Source: Candidatus Poribacteria bacterium
GTDB taxonomy: Bacteria; Poribacteria; WGA-4E; WGA-3G
NCBI GenBank assembly: GCA_021295715.1
Contig: JAGWBV010000037.1
Coordinates: 1-35,704 of the forward strand
DNA length: 35,704 nt
Direction of reading: 5' to 3'
Under the pieces are notes generated by a model. That model saw nothing but the letters and a program-made list of their open reading frames with translations, had not been told where the DNA came from and made no database searches. Shown piece by piece: positions 15,299 through 32,101 of the stretch; positions within the stretch are counted from its first letter, which is position 1; each line of letters begins with the position of its first letter. The position numbers were made by a program, and so were the translations under genes.

Positions 15299-15661
15299 AT
15301 GGAAAATTACAAAGATGTATTGGCAAAGCTTGCCAATCAAATGAACCATAAGAGAGCTGCTGAAAAATCTACTCCAGAAGAGAATAAACTCAAAAAGGAG
15401 TTTGGAAGGATTTTTCAGACGCCCACTGTTCACTCCGGCTGGCAGAGAGACTTGGAGATTCCGAGAGATATTGTCCGTAAGAAACTCATTGAGTTAAAGC
15501 GTGCAGATGCTGTTCTATTTCATAAAGAAACAAGCACGTTTATTCCTATCAAACCAATAAAAGGGAAAGATTGGTTAGCGATCACTGCTTACGAAGTAAG
15601 TGGCTTAGAAGAAACTCAACGTAAGACTGAAAAGGTAGGAGTACAACTTTTGACATTTTGA
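15299..15661 (+). CDS. Hypothetical 120 aa protein
   Basis: I do not recognise this protein. It is lysine-rich, with no signal peptide or membrane segment. Residues 1-50 look helical and charged. The middle (WQRDLEIPRDIVRKKLIELK) could form part of a small helix-turn-helix, followed by a beta-type stretch ending VQLLTF. It starts with ATG at 15299, 56 bp after the cysteine hydrolase, with only weak ribosome-site similarity (GAGGCGG is too far upstream). It faces the two minus-strand small genes at 15869-16557 across a hairpin-rich spacer. Confidence 0.6.
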   Translation: MENYKDVLAKLANQMNHKRAAEKSTPEENKLKKEFGRIFQTPTVHSGWQRDLEIPRDIVRKKLIELKRADAVLFHKETSTFIPIKPIKGKDWLAITAYEVSGLEETQRKTEKVGVQLLTF

Positions 15662-15691
15662 TTTAAACGTGCACCGATTTACTGGTATAAT
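15662..15691 (+). promoter_or_regulatory. Orphan extended -10 promoter reading into non-coding DNA
   Basis: TGGTATAAT (perfect -10 at 15686-15691 with TG extension) lies 18 bp after TTTAAA (15662-15667). No plus-strand gene follows for 15 kb. The next 180 bases hold a 20-mer repeat and two hairpins. Either a small RNA starts here or the match is chance. Confidence 0.4.
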
Positions 15692-15703
15692 GCGAAAACT
15701 ACA

Positions 15704-15723
15704 CCATAGGTGTCAATTTAGGG
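15704..15723 (+). repeat. 20 bp repeat, copy 1
   Basis: CCATAGGTGTCAATTTAGGG, identical at 32070-32089. The similarity extends a few bases leftward (GAAACTAC/GAAAACTAC). Here it lies ~40 bases after a stop codon; the other copy contains one. Confidence 0.6.
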
Positions 15724-15751
15724 ATTTTTGACAGCATTTTAGGAACTCAGA

Positions 15752-15826
15752 TATAAACATGCCGCCCTTACAGGGCTTGATTTCTTTTCTAAAACGCTGC
15801 TATAAACATAACGTCCCTACAGGACT
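15752..15826 (+). repeat. Pair of covarying hairpin repeats
   Basis: Two related ~26 bp units, TATAAACATGCCGCCCTTAC... at 15752-15777 and TATAAACATAACGTCCCTAC... at 15801-15826. Each forms a small hairpin: GCCC-TTACA-GGGC and GTCC-CTACA-GGAC. The C/G to T/A change is matched on both arms, which keeps the stem. Confidence 0.5.
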
Positions 15827-15868
15827 AAAGAGCCGTTTTGCGCCCCACACGGAATACGGTTAGAAATT

Positions 15869-16261
15869 CTATAGAGATTCATTGAATTGTTTGAAGAGTC
15901 GATCTCCGTCTTTAGGTGAAATAATTGTAGATTCCTCATTTTTTGAGAAAACAGATTCAAACTCTTCCTCTGCTAATAAAGTGTCAATTGCTTTACAGAT
16001 AGTTTCTTCAGTAAGTTCTTGGACAATCATCATATCAGATGCCCAGAAGTACAAGCCGTTGGCACATTCTCCTGTCTTTTTGCAGCGTTTCATCAAAGTG
16101 TCAATATTTTGGAGGGTAAAAAAGACCGCAGAGAAACTCTCACCGTTCGGAAAGGTGACTTGAACGTCGACATTATCGTTGTTCGGATCCAGAGACGCAA
16201 TTCCGCGATAGATCGTCAATTGGTAGTCATCGCGCTGAACAGTTGTGTAGGGTTTATCCAT
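15869..16261 (-). CDS. Hypothetical protein, possible immunity/antitoxin partner
   Basis: A 130 aa soluble acidic protein I do not recognise. It starts with beta-type segments (YQLTIYRGIA, VDVQVTFPNG) and ends with acidic helices (EETICKAIDTLLAEEEFESV). Two cysteines sit in KRCKKTGECANG. Its ATG lies 3 bases after the stop of the toxin-like gene at 16264-16557, so the two are certainly one transcription unit. Size, acidity and pairing fit an immunity protein or antitoxin, but no motif proves it. Confidence 0.55.
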   Translation of the reverse strand: MDKPYTTVQRDDYQLTIYRGIASLDPNNDNVDVQVTFPNGESFSAVFFTLQNIDTLMKRCKKTGECANGLYFWASDMMIVQELTEETICKAIDTLLAEEEFESVFSKNEESTIISPKDGDRLFKQFNESL

Positions 16262-16263
16262 TT

Positions 16264-16557
16264 CTATTTACCTCCAAAATGTTGTAAAATCTCATTAATT
16301 ACCTTCTGCTGGTTGTCTTTACCAGAAATCCCTAAAATTTCTGGCTGATCGCCTCTGATTCTCCAGTAGACTCGCGCACCACCATAACTGCGTGATTCGG
16401 TAATTCCTCTACCAATCGGTTTATTTCCTATCCCGGGATTCATATTCCCCTTTTTCAACTGGTCTGTAATTTTTTTAATTTCTGCTTGGAAGGATATTAG
16501 TGTTTTCCAGCCTTCCCGTAGAAGTAAAGGATTTTCGGAAATTCGATTGGTTAACAT
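16264..16557 (-). CDS. Small basic protein resembling RelE/BECR-type toxin domains
   Basis: 97 aa, basic. The C-terminal half reads NPGIGNKPIGRGITESRSYG, then GARVYWRI, then EILGISGKDNQQKVINEIL. The pattern of a glycine-rich loop, E-x-R-S, GARVY-x-R and a closing helix after K-D/N-x-Q is like RelE-superfamily ribonucleases and polymorphic-toxin C-termini; I recognise the pattern, not a named family. Residues 1-35 form a helical lead. An in-frame TAA lies six codons upstream of the ATG, so it is a stand-alone gene and not the tail of a longer ORF at this locus. It precedes its partner by 3 bases. Confidence 0.55.
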   Translation of the reverse strand: MLTNRISENPLLLREGWKTLISFQAEIKKITDQLKKGNMNPGIGNKPIGRGITESRSYGGARVYWRIRGDQPEILGISGKDNQQKVINEILQHFGGK

Positions 16558-16641
16558 TCTAAAGAAGCGTGTTTAATCCTGTTCGTCGCCACTGTTATCC
16601 CCAAGTGTTAGATCTTCAGGAAATATTTATATTTTTATTTC

Positions 16642-18534
16642 TTAATCAGTGGCGAAACTTTCCAAGGGTGGGAGTTCTGGATAGTTTCCGCGGGCGTGTC
16701 GCCACGCGAGGATGCCCTCGACGACCATCCAAATCTGCAAGGCTTCAACGGCGATACCGAATCCGAAGAGCAAATATTTGCCAGTGAAAAGCCAACCTGT
16801 TTCAGGATTGAACATCTGGTGTAGCATCGCCCATGCTGGCATGATGAGCATGAGGATCATCGGAAGGAGTGCAAACCAGATCGGTTTGTTGCGACGTAGG
16901 AGATAGAAAACGATGACCATGAAGGCTAATCCGGCTAAGAGTTGGTTCGTCGCCCCGAAGAGGGGCCAGAGCGTCAAACCGCCACTACCGGGACCGCTCG
17001 GTCCTTGGAACAGCGCAACTGCCGCGGCGAGCACTAACGCAAACGCGGTCGCAATGTAACGGTTCATCAACGGTTTGAACTTAACCGTTTGTGCCAGCTC
17101 GTATATAACATACCGTTGGAGTCGCGTTGCTGTGTCTAACGTTGTCGCGGCGAAACTCGCAACGAGTACCGCCATAATCGCAATGCCCATTTTGAGCGGA
17201 ATACCGAGAGAGGCGAGGAAATTCCCACCGCCGTCAACAAACGCACTTACCTTCGCTTTGAGTCCGTGGCTTGCCCAACCGCTGACGACTGTGGTCGTCC
17301 CATCAGGATTTGTTTCCGTCTTGATAGCATAACGCGCTTTCCAAGCATCGTGATTCGTAACAGGGGTTGCACTATCTGCTTTGACAATCGGTTGGAATGT
17401 GTAGTTTGCACCGGTACCTGTCCGGTTGAAAATCCCCATACCGATGCCAGCACAGCAGGCAAGAATAACGATAACGGCAAGTCCACCCTCAAGTAGCATT
17501 GCGCCGTATCCCACGTATTGCGCGTCGCCTTCGGAGGCAACCTGTTTACTGGAGGTTCCAGAACTCACCATACAGTGGAAACCGCTGACTGCCCCGCACG
17601 CAATCGTAATGAATAGGAAGGGCCAAATCGGTGGCGCATCGGGTGGGATGTCTGAGGCAATCGCAGGCGCAGATGCCGCCAAATCCGCTCTACCTGTCAA
17701 GCCTGCGACGGCAAGTCCAAGCACTAATAGGAGGAGCGCCAATACCAATTCATGGCTGTTAATGAAATCACGCGGTTGCAGAAGCGTCCAGACGGGCAAC
17801 ACTGAAGCGATAAAACAGTAGACGAAAAGCACCAGTGTCCAAATTACTACGACGTTTAGGTAAGTTTGTCCGAGCAAGGGGATACCGAACCATTGCGAGA
17901 GATCAATCGGTAGAAGGTACGCACCGACTGCCATCCCAATGTACATGATACCGAGCGCGACAATGGAAGGGATGAGAATATTGCCGCCTCTACGATAGAT
18001 CCAGATACCGATAGCGACTGCGAGCGGAATTTCCACCCAAACGGACAGGACAGATTCAGGATAGTAGGAAAATATCAGGGCAATGACCAACCCGAAGATA
18101 GCAAGGACAATCGTCAGTCCCATAAAGAGAACGAAAAGGAAGAGAAATTTCGCGCGCGGACCGATCATCCGCCCCGCAACTTCGCCGACACTTTGTCCAC
18201 GATTGCGGAGGGATACCACAAGCGCGCCGAAGTCATGCACAGCACCAATGAAGACAGAGCCGAGGACAACCCAAAGCAACGCCGGTAGCCATCCCCAGAA
18301 AACGGCGATGGCAGGTCCCACGATCGGACCTGTACCCGCGATACTCGTGAAATGGTGCCCAAAGATGACCTCTTTTTTCGTTGGAATGTAATCGACATCA
18401 TCTCGCAGCTCCTGACTCGGCACCGTGGCTTCGGCGTCTAAGCCGAAAATCTTTCTCGCTAACCATTTACCATAGGTATGATAGGCGACGATGAAGCCGA
18501 TGAAGCTCAAAACCGCAATAATCAGCGTGTTCAT
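16642..18534 (-). CDS. cstA: Carbon starvation protein CstA (pyruvate/peptide transporter family)
   Basis: A 630 aa polytopic inner-membrane protein with at least 14 hydrophobic segments. The conserved CstA opening is present: IVAYHTYGKWLARKIFGLDA, then DYIPTKKEVIFGHHFTSIAG and GPIVGPAIAVFWGWLPALLW. E. coli CstA and BtsT/YjiY import pyruvate, and CstA also peptides, during starvation. The protein is slightly shorter than E. coli CstA (701 aa). A soluble loop (about residues 385-440, containing KTETNPDGTTTVVSGWASHG) is inserted between membrane segments. AAGG lies in an A-rich leader before the ATG. The toxin-like pair follows 84 bp downstream on the same strand. Confidence 0.93.
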   Translation of the reverse strand: MNTLIIAVLSFIGFIVAYHTYGKWLARKIFGLDAEATVPSQELRDDVDYIPTKKEVIFGHHFTSIAGTGPIVGPAIAVFWGWLPALLWVVLGSVFIGAVHDFGALVVSLRNRGQSVGEVAGRMIGPRAKFLFLFVLFMGLTIVLAIFGLVIALIFSYYPESVLSVWVEIPLAVAIGIWIYRRGGNILIPSIVALGIMYIGMAVGAYLLPIDLSQWFGIPLLGQTYLNVVVIWTLVLFVYCFIASVLPVWTLLQPRDFINSHELVLALLLLVLGLAVAGLTGRADLAASAPAIASDIPPDAPPIWPFLFITIACGAVSGFHCMVSSGTSSKQVASEGDAQYVGYGAMLLEGGLAVIVILACCAGIGMGIFNRTGTGANYTFQPIVKADSATPVTNHDAWKARYAIKTETNPDGTTTVVSGWASHGLKAKVSAFVDGGGNFLASLGIPLKMGIAIMAVLVASFAATTLDTATRLQRYVIYELAQTVKFKPLMNRYIATAFALVLAAAVALFQGPSGPGSGGLTLWPLFGATNQLLAGLAFMVIVFYLLRRNKPIWFALLPMILMLIMPAWAMLHQMFNPETGWLFTGKYLLFGFGIAVEALQIWMVVEGILAWRHARGNYPELPPLESFATD

Positions 18535-31145: not shown

Positions 31146-32075
31146 TTGAGAAATTTTCTGCTAATACTACTGATTATAGGGTTCGCCGCAATCTGCCTTA
31201 CGGGTTGTGAGCGACCTATGACAAAACCGATGATGGATGCCGTCACACCGACTGATATGCCGACAATGGATGACCCAGAGACGTTTGCAATGACCTTGGT
31301 TCAAGGTGCAGTCGATCTTTACAAAACAGAGGGTCGCGAGGCAATAATAGCCTACCACAACAGTCCTGCGAGTATTAATGGACAGTGGTATGTGTTTATT
31401 ACAGATGAGAACAATATCTATCTCGCGCATCCGGTGAAACCTGAATTCGTCGGTAGAGATATAACCCAGATTCCTGGAATTGATGGCACACTTATCGGTG
31501 TTGAGATTGCCATGGCGACGAGCGATGGACGCTGGACCGAGTATCTGTGGCCCAATCCTGAAACTAACAAATTAGAACAGAAACGCACGTGGTCCATCCG
31601 ACACGATGGCTATCTCTTTGCCGCTGGATATTATGAACCGTGGGGTCCGGATCCCGCAACGCTTCCAGCGGTCTCGAAAGAGGATCCAGCGGCATTTACG
31701 TATGCTATCATATTGGCGGCAATTGCGCGCTATGAATTTGAAGGACTCGAAGCGACAGCAACTTATTACAACGATCCAGCCAATATTGATGGACAGTGGT
31801 ATGTGTTCATCACTGGTGAACATGATACGTTTGTCGCGCATGCGCCAAGACCAGACTTCGTAGGGACTGACCTTAAGGATGTTATAGGTCCTGATGGATC
31901 ACCGGTTGGTGTAAATATTGCAAAAGCGACTGGCATCGGTCTCTGGATTGAGCACCTGTGGCCCAACCCTGAAAGTGGCGAGGTAGAGTCGAAACGCACA
32001 TGGGCAATACGACACGACGGCTACATCTTCGGGTCTGGGTACTACGAACCCGCATCCGAAGAAACTACGCCATAG
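31146..32075 (+). CDS. Lipoprotein with two tandem single-Cache-like domains
   Basis: 309 aa. The lipobox CLTGC places the modified cysteine near residue 20. Two homologous ~125 aa units follow (about residues 42-165 and 176-305). Each has the pattern GQWYVFIT...HP/AP.P.FVG.D...DG..GV.IA.AT, then LWPNPE, then KRTW.IRHDGY.F..GYYEP, which resembles sCache_2-type extracellular sensor domains. No signalling domain or second membrane segment is present, so it may be a free periplasmic ligand-binding lipoprotein. The start is TTG at 31146, supported by AAAAGGAG at 31131-31138. The end carries the 20 bp repeat that includes the stop codon. Confidence 0.8.
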   Translation: MRNFLLILLIIGFAAICLTGCERPMTKPMMDAVTPTDMPTMDDPETFAMTLVQGAVDLYKTEGREAIIAYHNSPASINGQWYVFITDENNIYLAHPVKPEFVGRDITQIPGIDGTLIGVEIAMATSDGRWTEYLWPNPETNKLEQKRTWSIRHDGYLFAAGYYEPWGPDPATLPAVSKEDPAAFTYAIILAAIARYEFEGLEATATYYNDPANIDGQWYVFITGEHDTFVAHAPRPDFVGTDLKDVIGPDGSPVGVNIAKATGIGLWIEHLWPNPESGEVESKRTWAIRHDGYIFGSGYYEPASEETTP

Positions 32076-32089
32076 GTGTCAATTTAGGG
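32070..32089 (+). repeat. 20 bp repeat, copy 2 (contains the stop codon of the Cache-like gene)
   Basis: CCATAGGTGTCAATTTAGGG, identical to 15704-15723. The TAG inside it ends the preceding gene. Confidence 0.6.
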
Positions 32090-32101
32090 GTTTCGGGGTC
32101 C

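What the first reader, a model, noticed from the sequence alone, without database searches (positions are those of the whole stretch)
15869..16557. Two-gene module resembling a toxin and its immunity/antitoxin partner
A 97 aa basic protein with a RelE/BECR-like C-terminal pattern (ESRSYG, GARVYWRI, KDNQQKVI) is followed 3 bases later by a 130 aa acidic protein. The order toxin first, partner second is the reverse of most type II antitoxin systems and is typical of toxin-immunity pairs or HigBA-like modules. Neither protein matches a family I can name.
Basis: partly seen in the sequence, partly recalled or inferred. Interest (0 to 1): 0.55.

Follow-up and report, generated by a model that had tools for sequence, protein, structure and literature searches.

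The report
RelE-like toxin with immunity protein
Two neighbouring genes of a sponge-dwelling bacterium most likely make a small RNA-cutting toxin and the protein that neutralises it; the same pair arms large secreted toxins in other bacteria, and in many relatives the toxin has been lost while the protective gene was kept.

Summary
Both genes lie on the minus strand: a 97-aa basic protein (16557-16264), then, after 2 bases, a 130-aa acidic protein (16261-15869). The genome is a Candidatus Poribacteria relative. The toxin reading is supported by sequence and predicted structure, and corrected: this is not HigBA. The 97-aa protein is predicted with high confidence to have the RelE/HigB (BECR) fold. 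Homologues form the C-terminal domain of Rhs/HINT, PT-TG/HINT and pyocin-type toxins in other phyla, and the 130-aa family sits directly behind them: 14 of 14 toxin-bearing genomes among 145 relatives, and 13 of 13 in a toxin-first search of 295 genomes of a Streptomyces group. The partner has no credible match in Pfam and no fold match, so it looks like an unnamed immunity family. In Poribacteria the toxin stands alone; the window's genome has no PT-HINT or Rhs-core match. The immunity gene outlives the toxin: in 13 Poribacterial genomes it is present without the toxin, often behind a toxin remnant, and still under purifying selection. Three Gilliamella loci show the same. Most likely: a toxin-immunity cassette cut off from delivery, held like a toxin-antitoxin module, whose immunity gene is also useful alone. 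Toxicity, neutralisation and target are untested.

The parts
16264..16557 (-). Toxin gene: 97 aa, pI 10.1, stand-alone RelE/HigB-fold (BECR) domain; residues conserved in the family include R56, R62, K80
15869..16261 (-). Immunity (partner) gene: 130 aa, pI 4.3, alpha+beta, no credible Pfam match and no fold match
16262..16263 (-). 2-nt gap between the toxin stop and the partner ATG
   Evidence: read from the sequence
16271..16275 (-). GGAGG, a likely ribosome-binding site of the partner, inside the last codons of the toxin gene (suggests coupled translation)
   Evidence: read from the sequence; function inferred
16558..16641 (-). 84-nt spacer to the upstream gene; no promoter-like site found here on the minus strand, so co-transcription with cstA is possible
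16642..18534 (-). Upstream neighbour: CstA family transporter (Pfam PF02554); the module sits behind cstA in several relatives
15813..15825 (-). Terminator-like hairpin downstream of the partner (2 such sites in the scan against 1.1 expected; weak)

Best explanation
The two genes are a toxin-immunity cassette of the polymorphic-toxin kind, standing alone without any delivery part. The 97-aa protein is a RelE/HigB-fold (BECR) endoribonuclease domain, probably an mRNA- or ribosome-directed RNase. The 130-aa acidic protein, made from the same message by probably coupled translation, binds the basic toxin and blocks it. In other phyla the same toxin domain is the C-terminal warhead of Rhs/HINT, PT-TG/HINT and pyocin-type proteins with the same immunity family encoded next to it. 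In Poribacteria the toxin has no signal, HINT or repeat part, so it most likely stays inside and the pair behaves like a toxin-antitoxin module: losing the immunity gene first would be harmful, whereas losing the toxin is not. The immunity gene therefore survives toxin loss and is kept, presumably because it neutralises related toxins arriving from neighbours. SHOWN by computation: the ORFs, the pairing, the homology to toxin C-termini, the predicted fold, toxin remnants before intact partners, purifying selection on both genes. INFERRED: RNase activity, toxicity, binding, action in the producing cell, protection against incoming toxin.
For: Fold: AF2 pLDDT 94.2, pTM 0.88; Foldseek best hits YafQ, YoeB, RelK, HigB1 with probability 0.92-1.00, E 1.8e-3 to 1e-2; VIA-align HigB1 Z 8.3, 3.2 A over 95 aa, YoeB 8.3, YafQ 8.2, RelE 8.1. 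Sequence: hhalign against five HigB-like proteins of relatives, probability 96.1, E 3.5e-9, 68 columns, 29% identity. Warhead position: C-terminus of proteins with Rhs + PT-HINT (2359 aa), PT-TG + PT-HINT (671 aa), PT-HINT (716 aa in L031; partial L096 and L077), Pyocin_S (218 aa). Pairing, toxin first: 14 of 14 toxin-bearing genomes of 145 relatives have the partner adjacent (coordinates); 13 of 13 of 295 genomes of the L101 group. Asymmetry: partner in 30 of 145 (3 are fragments) against toxin 14 of 145; partner 73 of 295 against toxin 13 of 295. Remnants: 11 of 14 orphan upstream regions hold a toxin-like DNA segment next to the partner, above the best of 700 shuffles; three Gilliamella loci hold stop-ridden toxin relics before an intact partner. 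Selection: orphan-orphan partner pairs median dN/dS 0.17 (53 pairs) against 0.14 paired-paired (37); toxin 0.10 (39 pairs). No PT-HINT or Rhs core match in the window's genome.
Against: No toxicity, binding or RNase data. One locus breaks the rule: L075 has an intact toxin and a partner frameshifted by a short deletion; whether it is an assembly error is unknown. L112 has both broken. 3 of 14 orphan regions show no toxin remnant, and several remnants are 22-36 nt that include the partner's ribosome-binding region, so could be kept for another reason. The 23 Streptomyces-group loci (of 30 held) with a partner but no adjacent toxin show no remnant either, so loss is shown mainly in Poribacteria and Gilliamella. 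Fold Z values of 8 are moderate, and single-sequence searches of the toxin against PDB and Pfam find nothing. The window's copy has S58-Y59 where the other 11 Poribacterial copies aligned have T-R. Other delivery systems in the genome were not searched for.
Confidence: 0.78

Rival explanations
1. A classical chromosomal type II toxin-antitoxin module of the HigBA/RelBE kind: the partner is a DNA-binding, unstable antitoxin that represses the operon.
For: RelE/HigB fold and profile similarity to HigB-like toxins; toxin-first order; both genes under purifying selection; no delivery domain on the toxin.
Against: The partner family is found directly behind large polymorphic toxins, matches no antitoxin or HTH family in Pfam (34 members scanned) and no solved fold. 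HigB-like pairs in the same bacteria carry a different downstream protein. It often persists without a toxin. TIGR02683 cut-off not reached.
Confidence: 0.1
2. A silent or reserve cassette: a displaced warhead with its immunity gene, not expressed as a toxin in this cell, available for recombination with a delivery protein elsewhere.
For: A free toxin-immunity cassette near a HINT protein exists (L032); stand-alone toxin cassettes are described for polymorphic toxins (PMC3482391, start of abstract and passages). The cstA 3' flank is variable between relatives.
Against: No PT-HINT or Rhs core match in the window's genome to recombine with; toxin ORF intact with dN/dS 0.10 across 39 pairs, unlike a decaying cassette.
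Confidence: 0.15
3. The small toxin is itself exported or injected into neighbours by an unrecognised route, and the pair is a working antibacterial weapon.
For: Homologous domains are warheads in other phyla; orphan immunity under selection suggests that someone delivers the toxin.
Against: Stand-alone ORF without HINT or repeats; conservation starts at residue 1. Secretion systems were not searched for beyond PT-HINT and Rhs core.
Confidence: 0.07

Closest known systems
Polymorphic toxin C-terminal domain Tox-RelE (BECR fold) of Zhang et al. 2012, PMC3482391 (passages read)
   Same: RelE/BECR fold, C-terminal to HINT/RHS in homologues, immunity gene next door; Actinobacteria and gamma-proteobacteria among the carriers.
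   Different: The paper lists Imm54 for Tox-RelE and reports only one instance of classical RelE as a polymorphic toxin domain. Whether the present clade is inside Tox-RelE, or the partner inside Imm54, could not be tested. In the window it stands alone.
Orphan Rhs toxin-immunity pairs of Salmonella acting as type II TA loci (PMC7043789, abstract and outline read)
   Same: A delivered-toxin domain and its immunity gene acting inside the producing cell.
   Different: There the orphan lies beside a full-length rhs gene. Here the window's genome has no Rhs-core or PT-HINT match, and the toxin is a RelE/HigB-fold domain.
HigB/RelE type II toxin-antitoxin modules (NCBIfam TIGR02683; HigB1, YoeB, YafQ, RelE structures)
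   Same: Toxin fold, toxin-first order in HigBA, similar size.
   Different: Curated cut-off not reached; partner matches no antitoxin family and often exists alone.
Orphan immunity genes, e.g. rAID arrays of Bacteroidales (PMC12247911, abstract and outline read)
   Same: Immunity genes kept without the cognate toxin.
   Different: Here a single gene left in place after toxin deletion, not in the recombinase-linked arrays that the abstract describes; protection is not shown.

Membership tests
Polymorphic toxin-immunity system | Toxin domain occurs at the C-terminus of large delivered proteins (Rhs, HINT, pyocin) | tested here: met
   Met for homologues: L101, L110, L031, L096, L082, L077
Polymorphic toxin-immunity system | The window's own toxin carries a delivery or processing part | tested here: not met
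   97-aa ORF, conservation starts at residue 1; own genome without PT-HINT and Rhs core matches. So 'toxin-immunity cassette', not a full polymorphic toxin
Polymorphic toxin-immunity system | Dedicated immunity gene directly downstream | tested here: met
   14 of 14 and 13 of 13 (L151 is a truncated pair)
BECR / RelE fold toxin | Helical segment followed by a four-stranded sheet with the RelE topology | tested here: met
   Model elements H10-35, E44-49, E52-56, E62-68, E71-78, H80-94; RelE-superfamily structures at the top. A prediction, not a solved structure
BECR / RelE fold toxin | Ribonuclease activity | not testable with these tools
   Conserved R56, R62, K80 would fit a metal-independent RNase; residue-by-residue mapping on RelE was not done
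NCBIfam TIGR02683 (RelE/ParE family toxin) | Score above the curated cut-off | tested here: not met
   19.8 bits against 62.85; L117 23.8, L082 21.1
Type II TA (HigBA/RelBE) | Antitoxin with a DNA-binding domain (HTH, RHH, Phd, AbrB) | tested here: inconclusive
   No credible Pfam match for 34 partners, no fold match; absence of a listed match does not exclude the fold
Imm54 (the immunity family listed with Tox-RelE) | Profile match to Imm54 | not testable with these tools
   No family of that name appeared in the Pfam scans, but whether the library holds one was not checked; the paper gives only 'GF, Q' as motif
Orphan immunity | Immunity gene kept under selection without the cognate toxin in the genome | tested here: met
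   13 Poribacterial genomes; toxin profile search of the same 145 genomes found no strong toxin in them, only a weak HigB-like hit in one, G031

The most novel reading that the evidence does not exclude
Poribacteria carry a domesticated warhead: a delivered-toxin domain and its immunity protein turned into a stand-alone module that is repeatedly disarmed by deletion of the toxin, leaving the immunity gene as a lasting, selected shield. That would mean toxins of this RelE clade are being delivered into sponge symbionts now, by an unseen attacker, and that orphan immunity in this phylum is made by toxin loss in place rather than by acquiring immunity arrays.
Probability: 0.3. Interest if true: 0.6.

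Novelty: new member of a known kind. Interest (0 to 1): 0.42.

Why it matters
It gives an unnamed toxin family and an unnamed immunity family, neither credibly matched in the Pfam copy used, a testable function. It shows one toxin domain both as a stand-alone module and as the warhead of large toxins, with the same immunity family in both settings. The repeated loss of the toxin with retention of the immunity gene, seen in Poribacteria and Gilliamella, is a natural experiment on how orphan immunity genes arise.

Tried and rejected
Single-sequence searches of the toxin against PDB, Pfam, PADLOC and PHROGs found nothing; profile searches of PDB sequences found only chance rows for toxin and partner and none for the HigB-like proteins. 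Scanning 18 toxin members one by one against Pfam gave only scattered rows with best E 0.0064.

The weak partner matches to pPIWI_RE_REase (E 0.043 in Pfam, 0.011 in PADLOC) and phrog_11080 (E 0.0011, unknown function) were set aside: below the Pfam cut-off (14.3 bits against 26.1), or of unknown function. The partner fold search gave nothing usable (Foldseek best E 0.3; VIA-align best Z 4.1); this does not show a new fold.

HigBA was considered first because of the TIGR02683 hit and rejected as a filing because of the partner. Viral contigs: the first toxin alignment found none; a broader one found one contig, the same that the partner search had found (L117).

The stop-tolerant search for toxin relics used shuffles of two-base blocks, not dinucleotide-preserving ones; the same holds for the 700 shuffles. 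The first neighbour listing was cut in the output, so parts were redone. Fisher tests of co-occurrence (p 1.3e-11 for 145 genomes, 5.5e-9 for 295) treat genomes as independent, which they are not.

Counts: one search has 30 genomes with a partner match, 3 of them fragments (G004, G019, G023). dN/dS and tree used 25 partner sequences (13 orphan, 12 paired); left out were G013 (cut by a contig end), G075 (broken toxin) and the three fragments. One search examined the 30 loci given (7 with an adjacent toxin, 23 without); the other 6 of the 13 toxin-bearing genomes had no locus there and were seen through.

Literature: no paper held both 'Poribacteria' and 'polymorphic toxin'; 'Imm54' occurs only in PMC3482391 and 'Tox-RelE' in that and one proteomics paper. 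'Poribacteria' with 'toxin-antitoxin' gave 23 papers, 20 seen as a listing only. PMC11062931 and PMC11980606 were read in passages and added nothing on this family. That the family is unnamed in print rests on these searches and on Pfam and NCBIfam.

Full report
WHAT IS THERE. Both genes lie on the minus strand. The toxin-like ORF runs 16557-16264 (97 aa, pI 10.1), the partner 16261-15869 (130 aa, pI 4.3), with 2 bases between stop and start. A GGAGG lies inside the last toxin codons, so translation of the partner is probably coupled. Upstream is a CstA family transporter gene (16642-18534, PF02554) 84 bases away. The nearest named records are Candidatus Poribacteria MAGs.

TOXIN FAMILY. No Pfam family matches any of 18 members credibly. 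NCBIfam TIGR02683 (RelE/ParE family toxin) is a sub-threshold hit for the window (E 7.6e-4) and for L117 and L082 (4.2e-5, 3.1e-4). The AlphaFold2 model built from 18 rows has pLDDT 94.2 and pTM 0.88. Foldseek ranks YafQ, YoeB, RelK and HigB1 among the first (E 1.8e-3 to 1e-2); VIA-align gives HigB1 Z 8.3 (3.2 A, 95 aa), YoeB 8.3, YafQ 8.2, RelE 8.1. Nearly all listed rows are RelE-superfamily proteins; Txp40 (Z 7.9) and Cami1 also appear. A profile search of 145 related genomes with the toxin alignment gave, besides the 14 strong loci, weak hits; five of these were read and are HigB-like proteins (open frames of 114-131 aa) followed closely by a second gene, whose product looks like an HTH antitoxin (recalled, not scanned). 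Profile-profile comparison of the two families gives probability 96.1, E 3.5e-9 over 68 columns. So the toxin belongs to the RelE/HigB fold by predicted structure and by remote sequence similarity, outside the curated families.

PARTNER FAMILY. No credible Pfam match in 34 members, no solved-structure match. The model is alpha+beta (pLDDT 86.5, pTM 0.73). The consensus has a TGECxxGxYFWxSDMIIV stretch and an earlier NDNVDV stretch.

WHERE ELSE IT OCCURS. A scan of genome contigs with the partner gave 67 loci, a scan of viral contigs 2. The toxin domain stands directly upstream outside Poribacteria/Latescibacterota in Streptomyces, Pokkaliibacter, Parabeggiatoa (broken by a stop), Fodinicola (broken) and one viral contig. 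There it is the C-terminus of larger proteins: Rhs repeats + PT-HINT (L101, 2359 aa), PT-TG + PT-HINT (L110, 671 aa), PT-HINT (L031, L096, L077), Pyocin_S (L082, 218 aa); L117 has Cu_amine_oxidN1 with a trace of PT-TG below its cut-off. On a Streptomyces plasmid the annotated 'polymorphic toxin-type HINT domain-containing protein' ends in it and the partner gene overlaps its 3' end; on another plasmid a free 87-aa toxin ORF with its partner lies downstream of a different HINT protein. In Gilliamella L081 and Edaphocola L089 the partner sits among small genes near sequences that I recognise, from recall, as Rhs pieces.

PAIRING, TESTED FROM THE TOXIN SIDE. Among 145 relatives the toxin is found in 14 genomes and the partner lies next to it in all 14. 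Among 295 genomes of the L101 group the toxin is found in 13 and the partner follows it on the same strand in all 13, one of them a truncated pair. From the partner side the picture is lopsided: 30 of 145 (3 fragments) and 73 of 295 genomes.

THE TOXIN IS LOST, THE PARTNER STAYS. In 13 Poribacterial genomes with a full or nearly full partner no toxin is adjacent, and a profile search of the same genomes finds no strong toxin elsewhere in them. Of 14 orphan upstream regions (13 plus one fragment), 11 carry a toxin-like DNA segment next to the partner at 36.5-83 bits, against 31.9 for the best of 700 shuffles; the clearest are the last 58 nt of the toxin gene at 91% (L012, L023) and internal pieces (L018, L022); 3 carry none (L005, L019, L024). 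In G001 the sequence runs from the neighbouring coiled-coil gene straight into the partner, where its close relative G009 has the toxin (partner dS 0.06). On the partner tree the paired/orphan label needs 10 changes, at least 6 by well supported branches. In three of four Gilliamella loci the toxin is a long relic full of stops or frameshifts before an intact partner (i-E 4e-10 to 5e-9; best shuffle 0.21); L074 and L077 have a broken toxin and an intact partner. The reverse exists once: L075, intact toxin, frameshifted partner; L112 has both broken.

SELECTION. Partner: orphan-orphan pairs median dN/dS 0.17 (53), paired-paired 0.14 (37), mixed 0.16 (94). Part of the orphan branches predates loss, but groups that are orphan throughout (L010, L011, L013; L015, L021) give 0.10-0.19. 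Toxin: median 0.10 (39 pairs). So both are kept as proteins, and the partner also without the toxin.

HOW IT MOST LIKELY WORKS. A RelE/HigB-fold RNase domain held in check by an acidic immunity protein. Without a delivery part, and with no PT-HINT or Rhs-core match in the genome, the toxin most likely acts only in its own cell, so that the pair keeps itself like a TA module; a precedent is the orphan Rhs pair of Salmonella (PMC7043789, abstract). Once the toxin is deleted the immunity protein is still kept, as expected if it blocks related toxins coming from outside; protection by orphan immunity proteins is described for rAID (PMC12247911, abstract). Toxicity, binding and target are inferred.

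WHAT IS NEW. RelE-like toxin domains in polymorphic toxins are known: PMC3482391 lists Tox-RelE with Imm54 and notes a single classical RelE instance. Stand-alone cassettes and orphan immunity are known too. New here, as far as the searches go, are this toxin clade with its unnamed immunity family, its stand-alone form in Poribacteria, and the repeated loss of the toxin in place. Hence a new member of a known kind, of moderate interest.

Noticed in passing
window 16558-16644 and downstream of cstA in L126-L138: The 3' flank of cstA is highly variable between close relatives: module, toxin-less module, a coiled-coil gene or unrelated genes. G007 and G009 share the sequence up to one point and then differ completely.
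   Followed up: partly
window 15299-15661 (+): A 120-aa ORF with a weak NCBIfam match to Cbf5 (E 8e-4, residues 26-78, far below cut-off); a piece of it lies behind cstA in G010 without the module.
   Followed up: no
window 15696-15728 and 32062-32093: Short stretches of 15662-15868, mostly a 25-32 base piece at 15696-15728, recur at 14 further places of the genome, one of them in this window.
   Followed up: no
L120-L124: HigB-like genes followed within a few bases by a gene that looks like an HTH antitoxin, in five Poribacterial relatives.
   Followed up: partly
L009, L010, L011, L013, L030, upstream of the orphan partner: A 216-221 aa ORF rich in GVISIG-like repeats directly precedes the toxin-less partner; a similar fragment lies upstream of the intact pair in L002.
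   Followed up: no
L069, L072, L075: Contigs labelled Latescibacteria/Latescibacterota carry partner genes 68-72% identical to the window's, suggesting transfer between sponge symbionts or differing phylum labels.
   Followed up: no
L117 6164-8297: A contig from a viral collection encodes a 577-aa protein with Cu_amine_oxidN1 and this toxin domain, followed by the partner; whether it is a phage or a prophage edge was not checked.
   Followed up: partly
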